Part shown: piece after piece, positions 394 to 12,393 of the stretch
Layout: each line of letters begins with the position of its first letter
Numbering within the stretch: position 1 is the first letter of the stretch
NCBI GenBank assembly: GCA_003990745.1
Contig: RBNI01005569.1
Span: forward strand, 1-12,393
Length of the DNA stretch: 12,393 bases
Reading direction: 5' to 3'
Source: Jimgerdemannia flammicorona
Taxonomy: Eukaryota; Mucoromycota; Endogonomycetes; Endogonales; Endogonaceae
Translations under genes and position numbers: made by a program
The notes under the pieces: model-generated
Told to the model about the DNA's origin: nothing
The model's input: the letters and a program-made list of their open reading frames with translations, nothing else
Database searches by the model: none

Positions 394-925
394 TTAAATT
401 GACTTGTTAGGAGCACTATTCAGTAGTAACTTGACACTTTCACTAATTGATAGCTTCTTGTCTTCTTTCTTTGGTCGGATCAGTGCCACAAAGGTACAGA
501 AGGGCCTTCTTGAACTGAATTTCTGAAAGAGTAGCAATTGGGGTTCTTGTCTGAGTCTTGTCTGACTTGATGGTAATGTTGGCTCCATTCTGAATCAAGG
601 TGACTTCATTCTTGATCCAATCAATCTGAGGGTTGTGCTGTGTAAGCCAGGGTTTGCCTAGGATCAGGTCATAGTCTCTTAGTAGTGCTACCTCGAAATC
701 TAAATGTTCCCAGTACTTCTGGATCTTGAGGGGAAGTTTAGCAGCAATTGAGTTGATTGGTAAGGTAGTGCCATCTGTGGTGACAACTCCACCATTCTTG
801 CCAGCTGGTTTGGTAAGAATCTTGAGCTTGTTGATGAGGTTCTTATTGATGAAGTTTCCAACAGCTCCGCTGTCTATAAGAACATCTAGTTCTTGTTCCT
901 TGACTAGACCTTTGAAAATGAGCAT
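394..925 (-). pseudogene. Aspartic protease and linker, frameshifted and truncated
   Basis: Continuing in frame after the dUTPase, LDVLIDSGAVGNFINKNLI carries the catalytic DSG (866-874) of a retropepsin, followed by the flap-side DGTTLPI and the C-terminal DYDLILGKPWL typical of Ty3/gypsy protease. The enzyme would cleave the polyprotein. After about position 520 the original frame ends at TAG 443-445. A second - strand frame (ending at TAA 394-396) then gives ALIRPKKEDKKLSISES, which resembles the linker of the + strand element (AISIRPSKGEPENSEED). A single-base indel near 490-520 is therefore likely. Homology is lost at about 394, before RT. Confidence 0.8.
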
Positions 926-1357
926 TGAATTGGCTTGGTTCTTGGCTATACTTGCAACTTTGTCAGTGCTGCCAAAGCCTTTCTGATCTCACTTAGTTAA
1001 GGACAGCTTGGTGACTTCTTTGATGACTGGTAGGGTGGCTCGCTCTAGAATGAGCTGTGTGATTCTGTCACCTTCATTGACGGTGTATGGCTAATTCTTG
1101 TGATTGACTAGCAGAACTTGCATTTCGCCTCAGAAGTCAGAATCAATGACTCCAGCACTAATATCCAATGAGTGCTTAAAGCTGAGACCAGATCTTGGTG
1201 CAATTCTTGCATAATGTTCCTTGGAGATTTCAACTGAAAGGCCAGTTGGAATAAGCCTTCTCTCATGTGCTGGAATAGTAACTTGTTGTACTGCTTAAAG
1301 GTCTAAACCAATGGCTCCTTCTGACTGTGCTTGAGGGATCTGGGTCTTGGGGTTGAC
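926..1357 (-). pseudogene. dut: Retrotransposon dUTPase domain, disrupted
   Basis: In the same frame as the gag and protease, the - strand shows the five trimeric-dUTPase motifs in order. Motif 1 is GAIGLDL-stop-A (about 1292-1318), motif 2 RIAPRSGLS (about 1182-1211), motif 3 GVIDSDF-stop-GE (1124-1153), motif 4 GDRITQLIL, and motif 5 KGFGST (965-982). The enzyme family hydrolyses dUTP to dUMP and pyrophosphate, limiting uracil in newly made DNA. Stops lie at 1295 (TAA), 1130 (TGA), 1091 (TAG) and 989 (TGA). Each sits where Gln or Arg is expected (for example the Arg of DYRGE), consistent with CAA, CGA or CAG mutated by C-to-T. Motif 2 is intact, unlike in the + strand element. Confidence 0.88.
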
Positions 1358-2015
1358 TCACATGAAATTGAGTACTACTTCTTGTTCAACTGATTGACCT
1401 TGGGTGTCTTTGGATAGGACCAGAATTCTCTTTAGTTTGGCAGTTTTCTTAGGATATTTGGTTGCAATGTGGCCAGGCTGATGACAAAAGAAGCAGGCTC
1501 CAGCCTTCTTGAGGTGCTCCTTTTCCTCGGGTGTAAGCTTGCCTTTCTTGTTCTTATCAATGATGTCTAGGTCCATGGGAGCAGGTCCAACAGTTCTGAC
1601 TTTGGATTCCTCCCTTCTGTGATTGTTGTTGTTGTTGAAAGGCGGTCTCTTCTGTTCAAAGCAGTGACCATAGGTGATGACATCAAATCTATCAGCAATT
1701 TTCATTACTATATCTAGGTCCTTGGGTTCTTCTAGTTCAATACGAACTCCTTTCAGGCCTTGGATGTACTTGTCGACCTTCTTGTCTTCAGTGACATGTG
1801 GTAATTCTAGCAGGATTGATAGGAATTGTACATTGTATGCTTGCACAGACTTGAGTTGTTTGACATTTGCCAGATAGTCTTGTGTGGCCTTAATGTTGTT
1901 GACTGGTTTGAATTGGCCTTGAATGGCATCAGAGAATTTACCCCAGGTCTTGATTTAGCCAGAGAATCTAGTATTCTGGACACGATTTTGCCACCAGATT
2001 GCAGCATTCCCTTGG
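1358..2015 (-). pseudogene. gag: Gag capsid and nucleocapsid fragment
   Basis: The - strand frame from 2015 starts inside capsid with AAIWWQNRV, a tryptophan pair usual in the Retrotrans_gag fold, and continues through KTWGKFSDAIQGQF and ELPHVTEDKKVDKYIQGL to a knuckle at 1454-1495. The knuckle reads C-FF-C-HQPG-H-IATK-Y. The final zinc-binding Cys is replaced by Tyr, a G-to-A change on this strand. TAA at 1955-1957 interrupts the frame where CAA (Gln) is plausible, and TGA at 1358-1360 closes it just before the dUTPase. The N terminus is missing because of the nested insertion. In life the product would be the structural protein of a retrotransposon particle that packages element RNA. Confidence 0.85.
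2011..2015. repeat. Probable 5-bp target site duplication, CTTGG (5' copy)
   Basis: CTTGG directly precedes the TG of the 5' LTR. The window ends two bases after the CA of the 3' LTR, and those bases (12392-12393) are CT, the first two of CTTGG. A 5-bp duplication is usual for Ty3/gypsy integrases (4-6 bp). The other three bases lie outside the window. Confidence 0.65.
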
Positions 2016-2124
2016 TGTAAGCGCACAACCTCCAAGCCACAGAAACCACACGTCATCCTCTGAACAAGCCACCGAAATCACACACGATCTTTGAACAAAT
2101 CTGGAAATCACCTGCAAGATCACG

Positions 2125-2180
2125 AAGCTGAGTCAAACAGAAGTCACAGCGCACAAAGCTGAGTCAATACCAAGTCACAG
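2125..2180 (+). promoter_or_regulatory. Twin 25-bp repeats with TGAGTCA sites
   Basis: Two direct 25-bp repeats (2125-2149 and 2156-2180) match at 21 of 25 bases. Each contains the palindromic bZIP (Gcn4/AP-1 class) consensus TGAGTCA, at 2129-2135 and 2160-2166. They end 18 bp before the ATG of the LTR-borne frame at 2199, so they could drive that frame or act as U3 enhancers. In the 3' LTR the first site is kept (10438-10444) while the second is TGAGTTA, a C-to-T loss. Function is inferred from the motif alone. Confidence 0.4.
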
Positions 2181-2198
2181 AATACAAGATTCACACAA

Positions 2199-3401
2199 AT
2201 GGGATCTTACCAATCCAGAACAAATACATATATACCCAGCCCCGAGATGCGTCGAAACAAAGAACCAAAACAAATAACAACCATAACTTCCAAACACACA
2301 AACATGACCACCGAGATCTACAAATGCATCCGTACTGACATTTGGAATGCTATTATCAACCGAGCCACACCCCCTCTGCCCCTCATGAATATCTACAGCC
2401 AAGCACCCCTCTACTTCGTAGAAGCCTGATGGAATGCCCTGAACATGCTTAATGAGGCCCACCGGATTGGACAAATCTCAAGCTACTACCAGATCGGCTG
2501 CCTCCTGGAAGACATGGTCGAACACCACCATGACACAGATATTACCCAGATGTCCCAACACCAGAAACTCATTGCCCGCAAACACCGAGAACTCTTTTAT
2601 GAGTACAGCACCTTTATTCCCTGCCTCTGAGTTACTACTAGCGAAATGGTTGCTACCCTGTCCTATGGCCAAATCAACAACATGATACAAGAACTCAACC
2701 ACAAGTACCTTGAGTACGTTGAAACCACAGACAGAACCTTCCCGCACCCCGACAATCACATCCTGCAAATGCCCCAAGTTGGATATACCATGAAGGATAT
2801 CTATGATATAATTAACTTCGACAAAGATGAAGCAGAAGACAATGATCCTTCTGATGCCGACATGACCTCAAGCCAAGGATCCCTTCCAACTCTGATCACA
2901 CCGCCAACTCTGCCGATGAACTTACAACAGTTCATAACCATGTACGAGACTTATTGGGACAATGACCACTGGTATGAATACCAATCTGCATTCACCCCCG
3001 ATTACTTCAACTACAATGAAGAGACCGGAGAACACAATCTGTACCTTCAGACAACCCTTGAGATTGAACCAACCACTCCACCACCCGAGTACAAATGACA
3101 TGAACCACAACCGCCAGCATACTACAACCTCGCGACTCATAGTGCTGTAACCTACAGAAGGTACGCAGATAGCGAATCCGATGAAAACGAAGACGATGCA
3201 CCACCTCTTCGCCCCCCAACACCTTATCCAGCATACGAGACAGATGATGCGATTCTGTGGGACGGAGATGAAGTTCCAATGTATTATTACCTCAGTGAAC
3301 AAGGAGAAGTAATCCACGAACTACTCTTCCTAGACAACTACTTCTTCAGAGATGATGCAATTGATGGTGATATCATCGAAGACTACCCAGACAGCGCCTA
3401 A
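2199..3401 (+). pseudogene. LTR (U3)-borne 401-codon frame, unknown protein, 5' copy
   Basis: A sense-strand frame starting at ATG 2199 and closing at TAA 3399-3401 lies entirely within the 5' LTR upstream of the TATA box. It has three in-frame stops, all TGA: 2427, 2628 and 3096. At 2427 the 3' LTR has CGA (Arg), so this stop is a C-to-T change; the other two TGAs are shared by both LTRs. The predicted product starts MGSYQSRTNTYIPSP. It is rich in Asp, Glu, Tyr and Pro, with an acidic serine cluster (SESDENEDD, about residues 323-332) followed by PPLRPPTPYP (about 335-344), and ends IIEDYPDSA. I see no signal peptide, membrane span, zinc finger or known catalytic motif, and I do not recognise it. 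U3-encoded proteins are known in some retroviruses but are unusual in fungal gypsy elements. Confidence 0.6.
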
Positions 3402-3444
3402 ACCTATAAATAGATTAGCAGTCATGGTATAGTTAGATTAGCCT

Positions 3445-3537
3445 TGTACGATGTGACTGTGAACTGACTCAGCAGTCAGACGATCTCTTGACATGTCAGA
3501 TTACACTTGTACTACATGACTGCATTCCGACTCAGCA
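3445..3537 (+). promoter_or_regulatory. 30-bp direct repeats upstream of the TATA box
   Basis: 3445-3474 and 3508-3537 match at 22 of 30 bases, sharing TGTAC, TGACTG and GACTCAGCA. The first contains a perfect TGACTCA (3465-3471), a Gcn4/AP-1-type bZIP site; the second has CCGACTCA instead. They lie about 55-145 bp upstream of TATAAATA, the usual place for U3 activating elements. The same pair is at 11754-11783 and 11817-11846 in the 3' LTR. Binding is inferred, not shown. Confidence 0.4.
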
Positions 3538-3590
3538 AAGCACTTAGTACTACACCTATATTTAGCATAGTCCAGATAGCCCCTCACTAG

Positions 3591-3598
3591 TATAAATA
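3591..3598 (+). promoter_or_regulatory. LTR TATA box (5' LTR)
   Basis: TATAAATA is followed by a CCCCCTCCCCC pyrimidine stretch. It is preserved in the 3' LTR. It would place the RNA start, and hence the U3/R border, near 3620-3630. It is the only strong TATA candidate correctly placed upstream of the AATAAA signal. Confidence 0.7.
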
Positions 3599-3714
3599 CC
3601 CCCTCCCCCAGACCTCAGAATCTCAGACCTGAACAATCCGAACACAACTCCTGAGCACTTCCCCACAATATCCCCCACACAACTACTCCTAGTATAGCAA
3701 TATCATGAATAGAG

Positions 3715-3720
3715 AATAAA
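3715..3720 (+). terminator. Poly(A) signal AATAAA in 5' LTR
   Basis: AATAAA lies about 125 bp downstream of the TATA box, inside the predicted R region, with A/T-rich sequence after it. R must contain the signal so that only transcripts reaching the 3' LTR are ended there; the functional copy would be at 12028-12033. Confidence 0.6.
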
Positions 3721-4078
3721 TCTATACAATAACCCACAAACCACTCTTAAGTAAATCTACTCCCTGTTAGGTCCTACTCCTAACCCCGTCACGAAATTTC
3801 CTTATTGGGTATTGTCTGCAGCGATATGCCAATTCAACTAAGCTGGCCTTAGTTTCTTGAACTTCCTGAAATACGGAAAATCCTGAACATCCAGAACTAG
3901 TCCAAAAAAGGACTTTGGTTGAGACGTCAACCCGATCTTGAAATCAATAAGCGTAGAGGACGTACTCCATACGAAATTGATCTTGACCATAAGAAAACGG
4001 TCTTCCAGAATATCCAGAACTTCCAGAAAACCCTTCCAGAACTACGTAACGGTTACTCTAAAAAGCAACCCTCTTACA
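3721..4078 (+). other. R/U5 region with in-frame open stretch
   Basis: This part of the LTR has repeated CCAGAA/TCCAGAAC words (for example around 3890-3897 and 4007-4045). From 3901 onward the gag frame is already open, reading RRGRTPYEIDLDHKKTV, and it continues through the LTR end and the PBS to TGA 4183. No ATG occurs in this stretch in that frame. It may be leader RNA that happens to be open, or the decayed N terminus of gag starting inside the LTR. Confidence 0.35.
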
Positions 4079-4081
4079 ACT

Positions 4082-4098
4082 TGGTAGCAGTGGTTTAC
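4082..4098 (+). other. Primer binding site (initiator-Met tRNA type)
   Basis: TGGTAGCAGTGGTTTAC begins 3 bp after the CA end of the 5' LTR. TGGTAGCAG is complementary to a tRNA 3' end CTGCTACCA, the acceptor end typical of eukaryotic initiator methionine tRNA, the commonest primer for gypsy elements. The match to a specific host tRNA past the first nine or so bases cannot be checked here. Confidence 0.7.
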
Positions 4099-4185
4099 AA
4101 TCCAATTCCGCTTCAAGACGCTTCCTCACCCCACTACAAACCCTTCTGCGAATTCCTACAAGTTGGTATAAAGCCCAACCTCTGA

Positions 4186-5085
4186 ACTAGAATTTATTCT
4201 GAACCATCTGACAATCTGGAGAGAATTGAACCTGACATACAAGGACAATTTGACCTCCACACCTGCAACAAGTGGGATAAACTTCACTCAAAGAAAGAAG
4301 TACTCCGATTAAACCAACAAATAGGTGAAACCCTATTCACTGAACTCCTTGTACTATACCCAGCAAGTCAAGACGAAGAAGGTCTTATAGAAGCCTTCTT
4401 TACTCTTCTCAATAAGAGTTTTGTCAGCTCCACAAACCCGAGCGACCTAGGACAACCAGCAGCAGTCTTTCTAGCCTTAGTTTCTCACGAAGCCCAAGCC
4501 TCTGTAGCCAAGTGGCTCAACTCTACCAATTTTCACCGCACCAGGACCAAGACCGCGTTATACTACCGATTCCAGAACAGCAAGGCCTACCATATTCTTA
4601 AGGAAGAAGCAAGAGAAACCCTTCATCAACTACCTGACCCCGAACCTGAAGCAGGCCCTGCTACAGCCCTATCTGAATCTGAAACCAATACTGAACCAGA
4701 ACTTGACTTTGAATTAAGTCTCTCTGAAATCAGATATACAACTGATTCTGTCTACTTTGACGCCGAGCAAACCCAAGTACACAGGGACCAAACCGAAGAG
4801 GAGGAGGAGTATCTCAGTGAATTCAATCCCGGATATACCGCCGAAGGAAATGAACCTCCATCAGGACAGAATACACCTACACAGCAACAGACAGCTATCT
4901 ATCAAGCCCTTACTCCAGACCCACAACTATTACTCCAGCAACTTATACAGACCCAAAGAACCCCATCACACTCTGCACCAGTACCTTAAGTAGTACCAGT
5001 AACACCACTATCAGCAGTCCAACCGCCTCCAGTAAACAATATAGCAAACCAACAGATTATAGACCTCACAGCCCAGGTAGCTATA
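4186..5085 (+). pseudogene. N-terminal gag extension, unrecognised
   Basis: About 300 codons precede the capsid-like part of gag in the same frame. The first half (for example LNQQIGETLFTELLVLYPAS and AAVFLALVSHEAQASVAKWL) looks helical and folded. The second half, after about 4620, is Pro/Glu/Ser- and Gln-rich (EPEAGPATALSESE, EEEEEYLSEF, QNTPTQQQTA) and probably disordered, ending at TAA 4987. Most gypsy gag proteins start much closer to the capsid. It could be a matrix-like or assembly region. I do not recognise a family, and the true start codon is unknown. Confidence 0.6.
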
Positions 5086-6057
5086 ATGGCAGCAACCATT
5101 ACTGCCTTAGCTGAACAAACCCGACCTACAAAAAATCTGAGTCTACCTACCTTCAATGGTACTGCACAAGAAGTCCAAAGCTTCATTAGTGTAGTTGACA
5201 CCAACTTCGAAGCCAATCAATGGACCAATGAGCGAGTTGCTGACCGTGTTCTGATGAACAATCAAGACCACACTCTGGAACAACTCTTTGCTACTACTAC
5301 AGCCTATGTCTGCCAAGTTGTTACATTCTTCCGAGGACCTGCCGAAGAATGGTAGTAAACCCTTCCTGAAAAACACCTCACATGGGACACCCGACCTGCA
5401 GTAGTTGCTCAGAATGCAGCAAACAATGCCCCAGGATATGGAGCCCATCCTGCAGCCCCTGGACTCAAACAACTCATGATTGCTCAATATCGCAGCGAAA
5501 CCATGATCACTGAGTCTCGAGTAAAACTTCGCAACCTCAAATTTGATGTACATGGCAAGGAGGAATTCGAAACCTTCTGTACAAAACTCGAGTCACTTCT
5601 GAACACCGTTGGCCTAGGATACATTACCAATGACAAAGCACGAAATAGTACAAGAGCAGACCATTTATTCGATGCCCTGCCTGAATGGCTTACTAGAAAA
5701 ATCCGAGAACAAGGATGCCCAGTTGGTTGTGACCATCAACAATGGTGTCTAGTAAGAATCAAGACTATGGTCAAGCAGATCCTAACAGCCGGACCCATTC
5801 TGCCCAGAAGACAATTCAATAACAAGGAAAAGACTTGGACTAAGAAAGAAGAACCCAAGTATGAAGCATCCCGAGCTCCCTTATCATCCACTTCGTGGAT
5901 ACCCAGAAATCATGAACCCACCCAGCCGAGTACCTTCAAGAAACTCACTGAAGGTGAAAGAAATGAACTTAGAAGAAGTGGAGCATGCTTCTATTGCCGA
6001 AAGACAGGACACATGGCCAGTGCCTGCCCTAACCGAAAACCACGAACAGCAACATGA
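5086..6057 (+). pseudogene. gag: Gag capsid and nucleocapsid with CCHC zinc knuckle
   Basis: The capsid begins around LSLPTFNGTAQEVQSFI (5137-5187), the usual N-terminal signature of Ty3/gypsy gag, continues through GPAEEW at 5335-5352, is broken by TAG-TAA (5353-5358), and resumes with TLPEKHLTWD. After a basic linker, the knuckle C-FY-C-RKTG-H-MASA-C (5986-6027) has all four zinc ligands in the CX2CX4HX4C spacing. The product would form the particle and bind RNA. TGA 6055-6057 follows the knuckle by nine codons; it may be a mutated codon or the real gag terminator. Confidence 0.88.
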
Positions 6058-6627
6058 GCAACTATTACCACTCTCCACCACCTCAACAACCTGACTACCA
6101 GAACCCTAGACTTTGTCAAGTTAAGACCAACGGCCAAAGCCCCAACCAAAGGAAGCCAAAAAGCAGCTGGATATGACCTGTATGCAGCCGAAGAAGCTAC
6201 AGTCTCTAACCGAGAAGTCAAACAAGTCTACACAGGAATCAGTATCCAAATCCCTGAAGGACATGTTGGAAGAATATGCTGTCACAGCAGCCTAGCATTG
6301 AAAGGACTCTCAGTAGAAGGAGGAGTCATTGACGAAGACTACACAGGCGAAATTATTGTCCTCATCCGAAACCACAGTTGGACACCCTTCAAGATTCCCA
6401 TTGGATTCTGTATTGCCCAGATCCTATTCGAAAAAATCGAGTCAAACCTGATAGTCAAGGAAGTCCCTGAATTACTGCCCACTATCCGAGGATCCAAAGG
6501 ATTCAGTTCATCAAACAAGGCCTCAGTCCAACCTACCATGAACAAGGAAGAACAATTCTATAAGAAAATCGAAGATGGATATATACCAAGTGGCCGATGC
6601 CCCCATGGTATTGGAATGTACTCTTCC
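6058..6627 (+). pseudogene. dut: Retrotransposon dUTPase domain
   Basis: All five trimeric-dUTPase motifs are present in frame between gag and protease. Motif 1 is AAGYDLYA (6163-6186), motif 2 GRICCHSSLA (6268-6297), motif 3 GVIDEDYTGEI (6322-6354), motif 4 GFCIAQIL (6403-6426), and motif 5 RGSKGFSSS (6487-6513). The family hydrolyses dUTP to dUMP and pyrophosphate. The Asp of motif 3 that positions the catalytic water is kept. Motif 2 has lost the usual P-R-S-G (now C-H-S-S), motif 3 the Arg of DYRGE, motif 4 the Arg of GDRIAQ (now Cys) and motif 5 a Gly. Several of these fit C-to-T or G-to-A decay, so this copy is probably inactive. Residues beyond motif 5 (to TGA 6628) form a linker to protease. 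Confidence 0.92.
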
Positions 6628-6630
6628 TGA

Positions 6631-7050
6631 ATGATTGATGATTGCTTCTCTTGTGTCAACGAACTGGCTCAAAGAAGAACTAACAGAAGGAAAGCTCCTA
6701 CAACCGAAATCACCACCATTGGATCAGACAAACTGCTTACACTTAAAGCTTTTGTCAACCGAGTACCTGTCAAGATCATGATAGACAGCGGTACCTTAGG
6801 TAACTTCATCAATGAAGAAACAGCCAACAGACTCAAGGTCTTCACCTCTCCAGTACAACAAACCCAAGCAGTTGCCACAGCTGATGGAACCTCACATATC
6901 ATTAGTAAGGAAGTCCGCAATCTGCCCTTCCAAATCGGTGACTATCGAGTACATGTTACCCTCTAGATCGTACCACTCCCAGACAACAAAATCATCCTTG
7001 GAACTCTATGGTTAAAACAAGAAAACCCCATGATCGATTGGGTAAACCAT
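6631..7050 (+). pseudogene. Retropepsin-like aspartic protease
   Basis: VPVKIMIDSGTLGNFINEE carries the catalytic DSG (6784-6792) in the form common to Ty3/gypsy proteases (DSGAxxNFI). The flap region includes ADGTSHII, and the C-terminal strand is IILGTLWLKQENPMIDW, close to the consensus ILGxxWL...P.IDW. TAG 6964-6966 interrupts just before it (VTL-stop-IVPLP) where CAG is likely. The enzyme would process the polyprotein as a dimer. It is similar in layout to the - strand element's protease but not nearly identical. Confidence 0.9.
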
Positions 7051-7329
7051 TCTCTGACCATCAAGAAAGGACGATACAACTTCAAACTGCAAGGTGAAAA
7101 GGACCCACTCAACTCTAATGACTCTGGACCAAAGATCACCCACATCAACAAGCTACAACTTAAGAAATTAGCCAAGAAATGCCCTCTCTTTGCTATCTCC
7201 ATCCGCCCATCTAAAGGAGAACCTGAGAATTCTGAAGAAGACTTTTCCAAAGTTGACAGCCATGTCAGACCACTACTCCAGAAATTCCGAGACATATTTC
7301 CGAAGAAGCTTCCGAAAGGCCTACCTCCC

Positions 7330-7998
7330 AAACGAGCAGTAGACCATGCCATCAAGACTATTCCAGATGCCAAGCCAGCCTTCAAGTCAATCTACCACAT
7401 GTCTCCGAGAGAAATCGATGCACTCAAAAAAGAAATTGACGAACTCCTGGAATAAGGATTCATCAGACCCAGTGTCTCACCTTATGGTACACCAGTCCTC
7501 TTTGTTGTCAAGAAGAGAGGAGACCTGCGAATGTGTATTGATTACCGTGACCTCAACGAACAGACCATCAAGAACTGTTGCCTGCTACCCAGAATTGATG
7601 AAATATTCGATAGACTTACCAACCCACAATTCATGAGCTCTTTTGACCTGCGAAATGGTTACTGGCAAATTGCCATGAAAGAAGAAGACATCTATAAGAC
7701 AGCCTTCCGAACCTGCTATGGACATTTCGAATTCCTAGTTATGCCCTTTGGCTTAACTAATGCTCCTGCAACCTTCCAAACACTGATGAACACCATCCTG
7801 CATCCATACCTGGACAAATTTGTTGTTGTCTATATTGATGACATCCTAGTCTTCAGCAAAACCCTGGAGGAACATCTCGAACACCTTGAACTAGTACTAC
7901 TGAAACTCTGAGAAAACAGACTCTTCGCAAAACTCAGCAAGTGCGAATTTCTCCTGAAAGAAATCCAATTCCTTGGATACATTGTCACTCTAAATGGA
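7330..7998 (+). pseudogene. pol: Reverse transcriptase domain
   Basis: Classic Ty3/gypsy RT blocks are seen in order: the [16 protein letters not shown] palm entry, [29 protein letters not shown] with the first catalytic Asp (7645), [19 protein letters not shown] and [12 protein letters not shown], then [14 protein letters not shown] with the YIDD active site (7831-7842), and AKLSKCEF...LGYIVT. The enzyme copies the element RNA into cDNA. Stops at 7453 (TAA in LLE-stop-GFIRPS) and 7909 (TGA in LLKL-stop-ENRLFAK) replace expected Gln and Arg. The usual KNRYPLPRID reads [10 protein letters not shown], with Arg-to-Cys and Pro-to-Leu changes of the C-to-T type. Confidence 0.95.
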
Positions 7999-8004
7999 AT
8001 CAAA

Positions 8005-8655
8005 GTGGACTCTAGCAAAATCTCTGCAATCAAGGATTGGCCCAGACCCAAGAAGCTAAAAGACCTCCAGTCATTCCTGGGATTAGCAAACTATTACAGG
8101 AGATTTGTTGCCAACTTCGCCAAAATCGCCACTGCCCTTACTCAAATGACCAAGCACAACAAGAAAGAAGAACAACCCTGGACCATGAAACAAGAAAAAG
8201 ACTTCAACAACCTTGCAAATTGGGGACCTGAACAAGATACCGCCTTTCAAGCATTGAAAGATGCCTTGATAACCACACCAGTACTTCAAGTGGCAAATCC
8301 TGCCCTACCATACGAAGTTACCACTGATGCCTCTGACCTAGCTCTTGGAGCAGTACTCATGCAGGAAGGACACCCTGTGGCCTATCACTCCCGCAAGTTC
8401 AACGATGCCGAAATCAATTATGCAACTCATGAGAAGGAAATGTTAGCCATCATAGATACTCTGATCAAATGGCGACCATACCTAGAAGGAGCACACTTCA
8501 CCGTATTGACTGACCATAAGTCATTAGTCAATATCAAGACCCAGGCTACCCTTTCTCGAAAGCAAGCCAGATGGATGAAAGTCCTCACCAACTTTGACTA
8601 TGAAATCCAGTACCGCCCTGGTAAGGAAAACATTGTTGCTGATGCAATCTCCAGA
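8005..8655 (+). pseudogene. pol: RT thumb/connection and RNase H domain
   Basis: An uninterrupted frame follows RT. It holds LQSFLGLANYYRRFVANFA of the connection, a Lys/Glu-rich insert (MTKHNKKEEQPWTMKQEKDF) longer than usual, then RNase H with TTDASDLALGAVL (Asp at 8326), YATHEKEMLAII (Glu at 8437) and FTVLTDHKSL (Asp at 8512), and the closing PGKENIVADAISRPP. The catalytic acidic residues are all present. It would degrade the RNA strand of the hybrid and leave the purine-tract primer. Confidence 0.93.
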
Positions 8656-9900
8656 CCACCTATTGAAGAAGTCATCCAAACTCTCACTCTGGTTACAAAC
8701 TCCATCATGGAACAAATTATCGCAGCATGTGCTAATGATAAAGAAGCTCAAGCACTCCGAGAAATTCTAAACAGTGATGATACTGACAAGTATACCCAGT
8801 ACAATCAATACCAACTCAAGGACAATGCTATCTACTACAAAGACAGATTATATGTTCCAAACAACCGAGACCTCCGAAGGACTATCTTATTCGAATGTTA
8901 TGATGCCCCTATAGCTGGACATTTAGGATTTGATAAATGCTATGAAGTTATCTCCCGAAACTTCTATTGGCTCCGAATGGCAGATCAACTCAAGACCTAC
9001 ATCACTTCCTGTGATGCCTGCCAACGGAACAAGTCCTCAACACTAGCAAAACCTGGTCTACTCCACCCTATCCCAGTGCCATCCGCTAATTGGGAACAAG
9101 TCTCTATGGATTTCATTGTACAACTACCCTGAACCAAGAACGGGAAAGATGCAATTGTTGTCTTTGTGGACTATCTCAGCAAACAAGCTCACTTTGTACC
9201 AACCACCACCACTGCAACAGCACCAGACATAGCTATACTCTTGTTTGACAATATCTTCTGCTATCATGGTCTTCCTAAGATTATTGTTAGTGACCAAGAT
9301 CTGAAATTCACCAGCCATTTTTGGAAAGCCCTCCATACATACCTTGGAACAAAACTTGCACTATCTACAGCCTTTCACCCTGAAACTGATGGCCAAACTG
9401 AAAGAATGAACTGAACTCTGGAACAAATGCTAAGAAACTATGTTTCCTACAGACAAGATGATTGGTATGAACACCTCACTGCAGTCGAGTTTGCCTATAA
9501 CAACAGCAAGCAAGCCTCTCTTGGAATGACCCCATTCTTCACCAACACTAGACAAAACCCAAACACTCCTCTGACACTCATCCGAACCACTGAAGAACTC
9601 TCTACAGTTGAAGCTGTTGAAGAATTCTTACTCCGAATGCGTAATCTAAGCCAGATTGCAATTGAGAACTTATCATGAGCTCAAGAACAACAGTCACAGT
9701 ATGTTAACCAACATCGCCGAGAAGAAACTTTCAATATTGGAGAAAAAGTTCTACTAGACATCCGAGGATACCGAGTTGATAACCTCAAGCACAGACCATC
9801 TACAAAGCTGAACAGCAAGTTCATCGGACCATTTGAAGTTATTTCACAAGTCTCTCCAACCTCCTACAAATTGGCGCTACCAGATACTATTAAGATTCAC
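8656..9900 (+). pseudogene. pol: Integrase (zinc-binding, DDE core, GPF module)
   Basis: The zinc-binding domain reads GHLGFDKCYEV to SCDACQRNKS, with His 8920 and Cys 9010 and 9019; the first His of the HHCC set is Tyr (TAT 8899-8901), a C-to-T change from CAT. The core has Asp 9169 (FVDYLSK), Asp 9292 (VSDQDLKF) and Glu 9400 (DGQTERMN), the last two spaced DX35E. A GPF motif at 9826-9834 inside KLNSKFIGPFEVI marks the GPY/F C-terminal module. TGA stops at 9130, 9412 and 9676 fall at Arg positions of the consensus (LP-R-T, MN-R-TLE, S-R-AQ). The enzyme inserts the cDNA into the genome. Confidence 0.94.
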
Positions 9901-10008
9901 CCAGTCTTCAATGTCCAACATCTCAAGTGATACAATGACAATGATGATGAATTATTCTCAAACAGAACTACAAAACCACCTGCACCTGTCATTATTAATG
10001 ACCAGGAA

Positions 10009-10161
10009 GAATACGAAGTTGAACAAATTCTCAACAAATGTGGCCACAAGAACCACCCCGAGTATCTCATTAAATGGAAAGGTTATCTGATCCATGATAC
10101 AATATGGGAACCCAAGACCAATCTCCAGAATGCTACTGACTTAGTTCAGGAATACGATTCC
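10009..10161 (+). pseudogene. Integrase C-terminal chromodomain
   Basis: EYEVEQILNKCGHKN, YLIKWKGYLIHDTIWEPKTN and ATDLVQEYDSL form a full chromodomain. The three aromatic cage positions (Tyr 10012, Trp 10075, Tyr 10084) are kept, so methyl-lysine binding is plausible. In chromoviruses this domain is thought to steer integration to marked chromatin such as H3K9-methylated heterochromatin. TGA 9928 precedes it (HLK-stop-YND). TGA 10171 follows it, yet the frame stays open and basic (RRPR-stop-GRRKLRRGEL) to the LTR, so 10171 may not be the original end. Confidence 0.9.
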
Positions 10162-10310
10162 TTGAACAACTGAAATCCAAATACTCCAACACCTATCAGT
10201 GCACAACATACATATACTACTCCCTCAAACACTATAATTATCATGAACCTAATCAAAAACTCAGCAAGACTGAACAAAGTTAGAAGGCCCCGATGAGGAC
10301 GTCGAAAGCT

Positions 10311-10324
10311 AAGAAGGGGAGAGT
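10311..10324 (+). other. Polypurine tract
   Basis: AAGAAGGGGAGAGT directly precedes the TG of the 3' LTR; 13 of its 14 bases are purines. It would serve as the plus-strand primer left by RNase H. It lies within the open polyprotein frame, coding for a basic tail. Confidence 0.8.
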
Positions 10325-10507
10325 TGTAAGCGCACAACCTCCAAGCCACAGAAACCACACGTCATCCTCTGAACAAGCCACCGAAATCACACATGATCTT
10401 CGAACAAATCTGGAAATCACCTGCAAGATCACGAAGCTGAGTCAAACAGAAGTCATAGCACACAAAGCTGAGTTAATACCAAGTCACAGAACACAAGATT
10501 CACACAA

Positions 10508-11710
10508 ATGGGATCTTACCAATCTAGAACAAATGCATATATACCCAGCCCCGAGACGCGTCGAAACAAAGAACCAAAACAAATAACAACCACAACTTCC
10601 AAACATACAAACATGACCACTGAGATCTACAACCGCATCTGTGCTGACATTTGGAATGCCATTATCAACTGAGCCACACCCCCTCTGCCCCTCATGAATA
10701 TCTACAGCCAAGCACCCCTCTACTTCATGGAAGCCCGATGGAATGCCCTGAATATGCTTAATGAGGCCCACCGGATTGGACAAATCTCAAGCTACTACCA
10801 GATCGGCCACCTTCTGGAAGACATGGTCGAACACCACCATGACATAGATATTACCCAGATGTCCCAACACCAGAAACTCATTGCCCGCAAACACCGAGAA
10901 CTCTTTTATGAGTACAGCACCTTTATTCCCTGCCTCTGAGTCACTACTAGTGAAATGGTTGCTACCCTGTCCTATGGCCAAATTGACGACATGATACAAG
11001 AACTCAACCACAAGTACCTTGAGTACGTTGAAACCATAGACAGAACCTTCCCGCACCCCGACGATCACATCCTGCAAATGCCCCAAGTTGGATATGCCAT
11101 AAAGGATATCTACGATATAATTAACTTCGACAAAGATGAAGCAGAAGACAATGATCCTTCTGACGCTGACATGACCTCAAGCCAAGGATCCCTTCCAACT
11201 CTGATCACACTGCCAACTCTGCCGATGAACTTACAACAGTTCATAACCACGTATGAGACTTATTGGGACAATGACCACTGGCACGAATACCAACCTGCAT
11301 TCACCCCTGATTACTTCAACTATAATGAAGAGACCGGAGAACACAATCTGTACCTTCAGACAACCCTTGAGATTGAACCAACCACTCCACCACCCAAGTA
11401 CGAATGACATGAACCACAACCGCCAGTATACTACAACCCCGCGACTCATAGTGCTGTAACCTACAGAAGGTACGCAGACAGCGAATCCGATGAAAACGAA
11501 GATGATGCACCACCTCTTCGCCCCCCAACACCTTATCCAGCATACGAGACAGATGATGCGATCCTGTGGGATGGAGATGAAGTTCCAATGTATTATTACC
11601 TCAGCGAACAAGGAGAAGTAATCCATGAACCACTCTTCCTAGATGACTACTTCTTCGGAGATGATGCAATTAATGGTGATGTCATCGAAGACTACCCAGA
11701 CAGTGCCTAA
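10508..11710 (+). pseudogene. LTR (U3)-borne 401-codon frame, 3' copy
   Basis: It has exactly the same length (ATG 10508 to TAA 11708-11710) as the copy in the 5' LTR, with no indel. In-frame stops are TGA at 10670, 10937 and 11405. At 10670 the 5' copy has CGA, while the 5' copy's own stop at 2427 is CGA here, so the ancestral frame lacked both. The two remaining TGAs are shared; they were either already in the parent element or fixed by recurrent CpG deamination. The product is unrecognised. As the 3' copy is also transcribed at the end of the genomic RNA, expression could be from a subgenomic or internal promoter. Confidence 0.6.
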
Positions 11711-11903
11711 ACCTATAAATAGATTAGCAGTCATGGTATAGTTAGATTAGCCTTGTACGACATGACTGTGAACTGACTCAGCAGTCAGACGATCTCTTGA
11801 CATATCAGATCACACTTATACTACGTGACTGCATTCCGACTCAGCAAAGCACTTAGTGCTACACCCATATTTAGCATATGTAGTCCAGATAGCCCCTCAC
11901 TAG

Positions 11904-11911
11904 TATAAATA
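11904..11911 (+). promoter_or_regulatory. LTR TATA box (3' LTR)
   Basis: TATAAATA is identical to the 5' LTR copy and in the same context (CACTAG before, CCCCCTCCCCC after). Here it could drive read-out transcription into the flanking host DNA. Confidence 0.6.
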
Positions 11912-12027
11912 CCCCCTCCCCCAGACCTCAGAATCTCAGACCTGAATAATCTGAACACAACTCCTGAGCACTTCCCCACAATACTCCCCACATAACTACT
12001 CCTAGTATAGCAATATCATGAATAGAG

Positions 12028-12033
12028 AATAAA
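12028..12033 (+). terminator. Poly(A) signal AATAAA in 3' LTR
   Basis: This is the copy expected to end element transcripts. It is conserved with 3715-3720 at the LTR offset (8313 after the 4-bp indel), in GAGAATAAATCTATAC. Confidence 0.6.
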
Positions 12034-12393
12034 TCTATACAATAATCCACAAACCACTCTTAAGTAAATCTGCTCCCTGTTAGGTCCTACTCCTAACCCT
12101 GTCACGAAATTTCCTTATTGGGTATTGTCTGCAGCGATATGCCAATTCAACTAAGCTGGCCTTAGTTTCTTAAACTTTCTGAAATACGGAAAATCCTGAA
12201 CATCCAGAACTAGTCCAAAAAAGGACTTTGGTTGAGACGTCAACCTGATCTTGAAATCAATAAGCGTAGAGGACGTACTCCATATGAAATTGATCTTGAC
12301 CATAAGAAAACGGTCTTCCAGAATATCCAGAACTTCCAGAAAACCCTTCCAGAACTATGTAATGGTTACCCTAAAAAGCAACCCTCTTACACT

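What the first reader, a model, noticed from the sequence alone, without database searches (positions are those of the whole stretch)
2199..3401. Conserved 401-codon frame inside the U3 of unusually long LTRs
Seen: a sense-strand frame of exactly 1203 bases in both LTRs (2199-3401 and 10508-11710), no indel, and only TGA stops. One TGA in each copy is private and is CGA in the other copy, so the parent frame was more open than either copy now shows. The product is acidic and Tyr/Pro-rich with no recognised domain. Known: a few retroviruses code accessory proteins in the LTR (U3 sag of MMTV, Nef overlap); this is not a standard feature of fungal gypsy elements. Inference: an accessory protein or captured host gene that explains the 2-kb LTR.
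Basis: partly seen in the sequence, partly recalled or inferred. Interest (0 to 1): 0.8.

Follow-up and report, generated by a model that had tools for sequence, protein, structure and literature searches.

The report
Conserved gene inside retrotransposon end repeats
A jumping element in a fungus carries a full-size protein gene inside each of its two end repeats, where normally only switches are found, and evolution has guarded that gene about as strictly as the element's own copying enzyme.

Summary
The frame 2199-3401 lies in the U3 of a fungal Ty3/gypsy chromovirus (element 2016-12391, LTRs of 2063 and 2067 nt). A degenerate pattern for one peptide of the product has 918 sites in this genome, reversed control 0. 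Across 89 compared copies the frame from codon 36 (ATG 2304) to the stop at 3401, 365 aa, behaves as a gene: a stop at codon 401 in 89 of 89, few frame-breaking indels, shared transversions N/S 0.58 against about 5.4 without selection, dN/dS 0.22-0.24 against 0.27 for RT-RNaseH of the same ten elements. Codons 1-35 look non-coding: ATG 2199 is present in 31 of 56 copies. 54 of 67 full-length copies now carry premature stops, 13 have none; the decay is nearly all C-to-T. A conserved TATA (3591) and AATAAA (3715) lie downstream of the ORF, which places it in U3. The product is acidic, Tyr/Pro-rich, without known domain or membrane span; one relative was found (247 aa, 64%). Function is unproven; I favour a regulatory accessory protein.

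The parts
2016..4078 (+). 5' LTR (2063 nt), TGTAAG...TTACA
   Evidence: 95.6% identical to 10325-12391; in 53 loci whose upstream edge was read, 50 show TGTAAG at the boundary and 20 have the polypurine tract before it, the others unrelated-looking flanks; letters
2011..2015 (.). putative target-site duplication CTTGG (only CT visible at 12392-12393, where the contig ends)
   Evidence: weak, 2 of 5 bases
2228..2234 (+). TATA-like ATATATA, 70 nt upstream of the inferred start codon; candidate promoter of the LTR gene
   Evidence: kept in the six commonest forms, 46 of 56 readable copies; the other 10 were not listed; promoter role inferred
   Evidence: ATG in 31 of 56 copies; dN/dS 1.25, 1.31 and 0.79 in three sets; 20 indels in 5.9 kb, but only 1 in the 13 flank-picked copies
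2304..3401 (+). LTR gene, 365 codons + TAA (5' LTR copy; three internal TGA)
   Evidence: start ATG in 84 of 87 readable copies, stop in 89 of 89
3591..3598 (+). TATAAATA, presumed promoter of the genomic RNA (places the ORF in U3)
   Evidence: in 51 of 51 readable copies; role inferred
3715..3720 (+). AATAAA polyadenylation signal in presumed R; may serve both the genomic RNA and the LTR gene
   Evidence: in 49 of 52 copies that reach it, the other 3 not aligned there; role inferred
4079..4096 (+). presumed primer-binding site, TGG at 4082-4084
   Evidence: sequence; tRNA not identified
4186..6057 (+). gag frame (broken), CCHC knuckle near its end
   Evidence: PF00098 E 8.3e-5 in 5476-6057
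6058..6627 (+). dUTPase domain between gag and protease
   Evidence: PF00692 E 2.2e-33
6631..10167 (+). pol frame (broken): protease, RT, RNase H, integrase, chromodomain
   Evidence: PF13975, PF00078, PF17917, PF17919, PF17921; PF00385 E 6.7e-14; rve core weak, E 0.002, below cut-off
10308..10324 (+). polypurine tract before the 3' LTR
10325..12391 (+). 3' LTR (2067 nt)
10613..11710 (+). LTR gene, 3' LTR copy (three internal TGA)
11904..11911 (+). TATAAATA of the 3' LTR

Best explanation
SHOWN: the U3 of this fungal chromovirus family holds a protein-coding gene of 365 codons (2304-3401), present in both LTRs, kept under purifying selection in the lineages that transposed, about as strictly as RT-RNase H. 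INFERRED: it is expressed as its own short mRNA from a TATA box at 2228-2234 with a start codon at 2304, and ends at the poly(A) signal in R (3715), so the whole transcription unit fits in one LTR; the genomic RNA starts from a second TATA at 3591. GUESSED (about 0.3): the acidic product, with aromatic residues scattered in an acidic tail, is a regulatory accessory protein that activates or de-silences the element's own LTR, as transactivators of complex retroviruses do. Because the ORF is in U3, each full-length RNA would carry it once (3' end) and reverse transcription would restore it at both ends.
For: Pooled inter-copy dN/dS 0.14-0.17 in frame against 1.0-1.8 in the two other sense frames. 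Transversions seen in two or more of 89 copies: 26 S, 15 N, 1 stop-making, against a neutral N/S of 5.3-5.6; transitions in nine or more copies N/S 0.57 against 2.0 expected, singletons 1.71. Same ten elements: LTR ORF 0.218 and 0.240, RT-RNaseH 0.269 (about 950 of 1128 nt of the latter read in most). Between-element minus within-element divergence leaves pS about 0.10 and pN about 0.01. Indels in 58 copies: 7 in 63.4 kb of codons 36-400 against 103 in 33.3 kb of LTR downstream; in 13 copies picked by similarity downstream of the ORF, 11 have none. Stop at codon 401 in 89 of 89 (87 TAA, 1 TGA, 1 TAG), start ATG in 84 of 87 readable. A relative, P0001, 64-70% identical, covers codons 150-400. 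Acidic and soluble by sequence: pI 4.3-4.4, maximum 19-residue hydropathy 0.57-0.76 in the four copies computed.
Against: 54 of 67 full-length copies have at least one premature stop, and 12 of the 13 copies picked without regard to the ORF do, so most copies read cannot now make the full protein. Neutral decay itself gives a low apparent dN/dS here (0.36 in 11 within-element LTR pairs), and an arbitrary frame in the LTR downstream gives 0.56-0.64, so raw values must be read against those. Singleton transversions also have a low N/S (1.58 against 5.4), so they are not a clean neutral class. No transcript or protein data. No known domain, no solved relative, a structure model of no use (pLDDT 36). 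The regulatory role rests on composition alone. The genomic context of P0001 is unknown.
Confidence: 0.7

Rival explanations
1. The LTR protein is real but works in the particle or in replication (a Gag-side helper, chaperone or host-factor adaptor) rather than in transcription.
For: The protein is about as constrained as RT-RNaseH, as expected of anything needed for transposition; PPxY-like spots occur in most of the ten open copies aligned (that PPxY is a WW-domain ligand is recalled).
Against: No similarity to the family's own gag N-terminal region (best BLASTP E 3.5); the PPxY-like spots are not kept in P0001; net acidic in every fifth of its length, so direct nucleic-acid binding is unlikely.
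Confidence: 0.3
2. A captured host gene, now carried by the element.
For: Only P0001 was found among 5.8 billion proteins, so a source outside known elements is possible.
Against: No host copy seen: the 60 loci of the first two searches match LTR sequence around the ORF as far as their contigs allow. The search scored only the best 150 of 3317 candidates, so a diverged host gene would be missed.
Confidence: 0.25
3. Not a gene: a stop-poor stretch that looks open by chance, or a relic that had no function during the family's spread.
For: Most copies read carry stops.
Against: Selection signals; 2000 Markov sequences never gave fewer than 9 stops.
Confidence: 0.03
4. An envelope-like protein or a Sag-like membrane protein.
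For: Position in U3 is that of MMTV sag, and this element also has a dUTPase, as MMTV does (PMC11998498, passages seen).
Against: No hydrophobic span (maximum 19-residue hydropathy 0.76 in four copies, 0.97 in P0001); no Pfam match.
Confidence: 0.03

Closest known systems
Fungal Ty3/gypsy elements with a dUTPase (Postia placenta PosPlaTy3-3 to -5, Phanerochaete elements, Tuber Tmt1; PMC2864245, section 5 and passages read)
   Same: Ty3 order of pol, dUTPase in the polyprotein, fungal host; many fungal families there are chromoviruses
   Different: Here the dUTPase lies between gag and protease (that paper gives the amino-terminus of Pol, its carboxyl-terminus, or between PR and RT); the text read names an 'add. 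ORF' only in a figure legend and no ORF inside an LTR
MMTV sag
   Same: ORF inside the LTR; the virus also has a dUTPase
   Different: Sag is a type II transmembrane superantigen; this product is acidic and soluble by sequence, has no detectable homology, and the host is a fungus
Additional ORFs of bdelloid rotifer LTR retrotransposons (PMC5408684, abstract start and passages seen)
   Same: LTR retrotransposons with extra ORFs and dUTPase
   Different: Their extra frame is ORF3, next to gag and pol; the passages seen do not describe it as lying in the LTR
Nef, Tax and foamy-virus transactivators (recalled, no call)
   Same: Accessory reading frames at or near the 3' LTR; some activate the LTR
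   Different: Overlap the LTR only partly or lie before it; no Pfam match here

Membership tests
Ty3/gypsy chromovirus | Direct LTRs with TG...CA ends | tested here: met
   2016-4078 and 10325-12391, TGTAAG...TTACA
Ty3/gypsy chromovirus | pol order PR-RT-RH-IN | tested here: met
   integrase zinc-binding domain E 1.2e-18, core domain weak (E 0.002, below cut-off) in a broken piece
Ty3/gypsy chromovirus | C-terminal chromodomain | tested here: met
   PF00385 E 6.7e-14 at 9931-10167
Ty3/gypsy chromovirus | polypurine tract next to the 3' LTR | tested here: met
   in the window and in 20 of 53 loci read, those being 3' LTRs
Ty3/gypsy chromovirus | primer-binding site for a host tRNA | tested here: inconclusive
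   TGG-start stretch at 4082; tRNA not identified
MMTV Sag family | ORF within U3, upstream of the genomic promoter | tested here: inconclusive
   ORF ends 3401, conserved TATA at 3591; transcription start not measured
MMTV Sag family | membrane-spanning segment | tested here: not met
   maximum 19-residue hydropathy 0.76 in four copies
MMTV Sag family | sequence homology | tested here: not met
   no Pfam family at E 1 for any of 11 sequences; no direct comparison with Sag was made
Envelope-like third ORF | transmembrane segment | tested here: not met
Captured host gene | homologous gene in the host | tested here: inconclusive
   only LTR copies among 60 loci; diverged homologues out of reach of the listing
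Protein-coding gene | purifying selection and kept start, frame and stop | tested here: met
Protein-coding gene | transcript and protein | not testable with these tools
   no RNA or peptide data held

The most novel reading that the evidence does not exclude
The LTR is a self-contained gene cassette: its own promoter, ORF and poly(A) signal lie within one 2-kb repeat, so each insertion, and even a solo LTR, can spread a working gene whose product regulates the family in trans. That would be a complex, retrovirus-like control circuit in a fungal chromovirus, arising independently of MMTV sag in an element that also has a dUTPase.
Probability: 0.35. Interest if true: 0.8.

Novelty: new variant of a known kind. 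Interest (0 to 1): 0.62.

Why it matters
LTRs are treated as regulatory DNA; here about half of an LTR is a gene that selection has kept about as strictly as the polymerase. Repeat annotation usually masks LTRs, so such genes could be missed in other genomes. If the product controls silencing, it gives a handle on how fungal elements reach high copy number despite cytosine-targeted mutation.

Tried and rejected
Chance frame: rejected. Start at 2199: rejected, ATG in 31 of 56 copies and no constraint in codons 1-35; in the 13 flank-picked copies codons 1-35 had only 1 indel (one of the 13 not covered there), so the indel contrast is weaker than in the first 58 copies. Antisense frames: the best has a mean of 5.7 stops over 365 codons in 62 copies, against 2.0 in the sense frame. 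Duplication of gag: no similarity. Routes that gave nothing: Pfam, PDB sequences, AlphaFold pLDDT 36, so no fold search was run, viral and prokaryote contigs (two short peptide patterns each). dN/dS of 1 as the neutral yardstick: rejected, because within-element LTR pairs give 0.36; I used those pairs, transversions and pol instead. One of the 11 pairs (L086-L087) has 16 transversions and is probably not one element; it is kept in the pooled figures and left out. Host: fungal by 22 PF04082 matches, with none in the 14 control genomes; species not identified; a fungal rhodopsin search rang nowhere and says nothing. The nearest RT-RNaseH protein in the large database is 48% identical.

Start codon and AATAAA were recounted there too.

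Literature: ten searches were answered, all in open-licence PMC only. None of the listed titles and abstract openings reports an ORF inside an LTR of a fungal retrotransposon; the Tmt1 paper itself was not seen.

Full report
What was checked. The window is one contig of a 134.8-Mb assembly with 22 matches to the fungal transcription-factor domain PF04082, so the host is a fungus; the species is not known. Self-comparison gives LTRs at 2016-4078 and 10325-12391, 95.6% identical, starting TGTAAG and ending TTACA. In 53 loci (two of them the window's own LTRs) whose upstream edge was read, 50 show TGTAAG at the boundary; 20 have the polypurine tract before it, the others sequence that looks unrelated from copy to copy. 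So the repeat is an LTR. Between the LTRs one broken frame runs gag (CCHC), dUTPase (PF00692, E 2.2e-33), protease, RT, RNase H, integrase zinc domain and chromodomain (PF00385, E 6.7e-14): a chromovirus.

The frame. Both copies are 1203 bases without an indel, with only TGA stops inside. A TATAAATA box found in 51 of 51 readable copies lies at 3591, and AATAAA, in 49 of 52 copies that reach it, at 3715. Both are downstream of the ORF, so the ORF is in U3 if that TATA drives the genomic RNA (inferred).

Copies. A DNA search scored 40 of 2814 candidates, a protein search with the relative P0001 150 of 3317. A degenerate pattern for the peptide FTPDYFNYNE has 918 exact sites, control 0. Among the 100 sites listed there I count 12 same-strand pairs 8.37-8.60 kb apart, as expected of the two LTRs of one element. 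The copies compared came to 89 distinct places after dropping four repeats of the same place (L032, L044, L086, L097). They are relatives near the window, not a random draw from the genome.

Selection. In codons 36-400, 58 copies have 7 indels in 63.4 kb; codons 1-35 have 20 in 5.9 kb; the LTR downstream 103 in 33.3 kb. Those copies were chosen by ORF similarity, which favours intact ones, so 13 more were taken by similarity to 3560-4060 only: 11 of 13 have no indel in codons 36-400 (one of them, L075, covered only in part), one has small indels that balance, one a 15-base deletion. Nei-Gojobori dN/dS pooled over pairs is 0.171 (13 flank-picked), 0.165 (30) and 0.139 (28) in codons 36-400; 1.25, 1.31 and 0.79 in codons 1-35; 1.0-1.8 in the other sense frames; 0.56-0.64 in an arbitrary frame of the LTR downstream. 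These values need a yardstick, because decay is nearly all C-to-T, strongest at CpG (0.50 per site over ten pairs) and CpA (0.23), weakest at CpT (0.015). Within-element LTR pairs, which diverge after insertion, give 0.36; between-element pairs of the same 11 elements give 0.226; the excess between elements is pS about 0.10 and pN about 0.01. Transversions seen in two or more copies are 26 S and 15 N against a neutral N/S of 5.3-5.6; transitions in nine or more copies have N/S 0.57 against 2.0; transition singletons 1.71 and transversion singletons 1.58. In ten elements where both were read, the LTR ORF has 0.218 and 0.240 (its two LTRs) and RT-RNaseH 0.269. So the LTR protein was guarded about as strictly as the polymerase in the copies that gave rise to others.

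Start and stop. ATG 2199 is present in 31 of 56 copies, the ATG of codon 36 in 84 of 87 readable, and codon 401 is a stop in 89 of 89 (87 TAA, 1 TGA, 1 TAG). Premature stops are a minority state at every codon where they occur; 13 of 67 full-length copies have none, 54 have one to six.

The protein. 365 aa; pI 4.3-4.4, Tyr and Pro about 8% each, net charge -17 to -20 in the last fifth, no hydrophobic span, in the four copies computed. No Pfam match, no PDB relative, AlphaFold pLDDT 36. The only relative found among 5.8 billion proteins is P0001, 247 aa, 64-65% identical over codons 150-400 (up to 70% against other copies), from a 998-base ENA contig. The exact peptide of one of its blocks does not occur in this genome, so it probably comes from another species. 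Whether it lies in an LTR is unknown.

Mechanism. Shown: coding, selection, position in the LTR. Inferred: a separate promoter at 2228-2234 and a shared poly(A) signal at 3715. Guessed: a regulatory protein that acts on the LTR, from its acidic, aromatic tail only.

Known cases. MMTV has both a dUTPase and an LTR-encoded Sag (PMC11998498, passages seen). dUTPase in fungal Ty3/gypsy elements is known (PMC2864245, section 5 and passages read). Rotifer elements carry extra ORFs (PMC5408684, passages seen). I found no report of an LTR-encoded protein in a fungal element in ten searches, which cover open-licence papers only.

Noticed in passing
6058-6627 (+): dUTPase domain between gag and protease of a fungal chromovirus, E 2.2e-33; together with the U3 ORF this repeats two accessory features of MMTV.
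   Followed up: partly
4186-5085 (+): Three hundred codons upstream of the first in-frame ATG (5086) are in frame with gag, with one stop at 4987, but hold no ATG; gag may start by splicing or at a non-ATG codon.
   Followed up: no
LTR ORF copies, ten within-element pairs: Decay is almost all C-to-T, at CpG and CpA, hardly at CpT; ACG and CCG are hit more than TCG. Looks RIP-like or methylation-driven.
   Followed up: partly
2033-2064 (+): Two length variants of the U3 5' end: 12 of 53 loci read have the window's long form, the other 41 appear to lack about 32 bases near the LTR start.
   Followed up: partly
443-1846 (-): Protease and gag-like parts of a second gypsy element on the minus strand beside this one.
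   Followed up: no
1-202: Imperfect inverted repeat, arms 1-71 and 132-202, 87% complementary.
   Followed up: no
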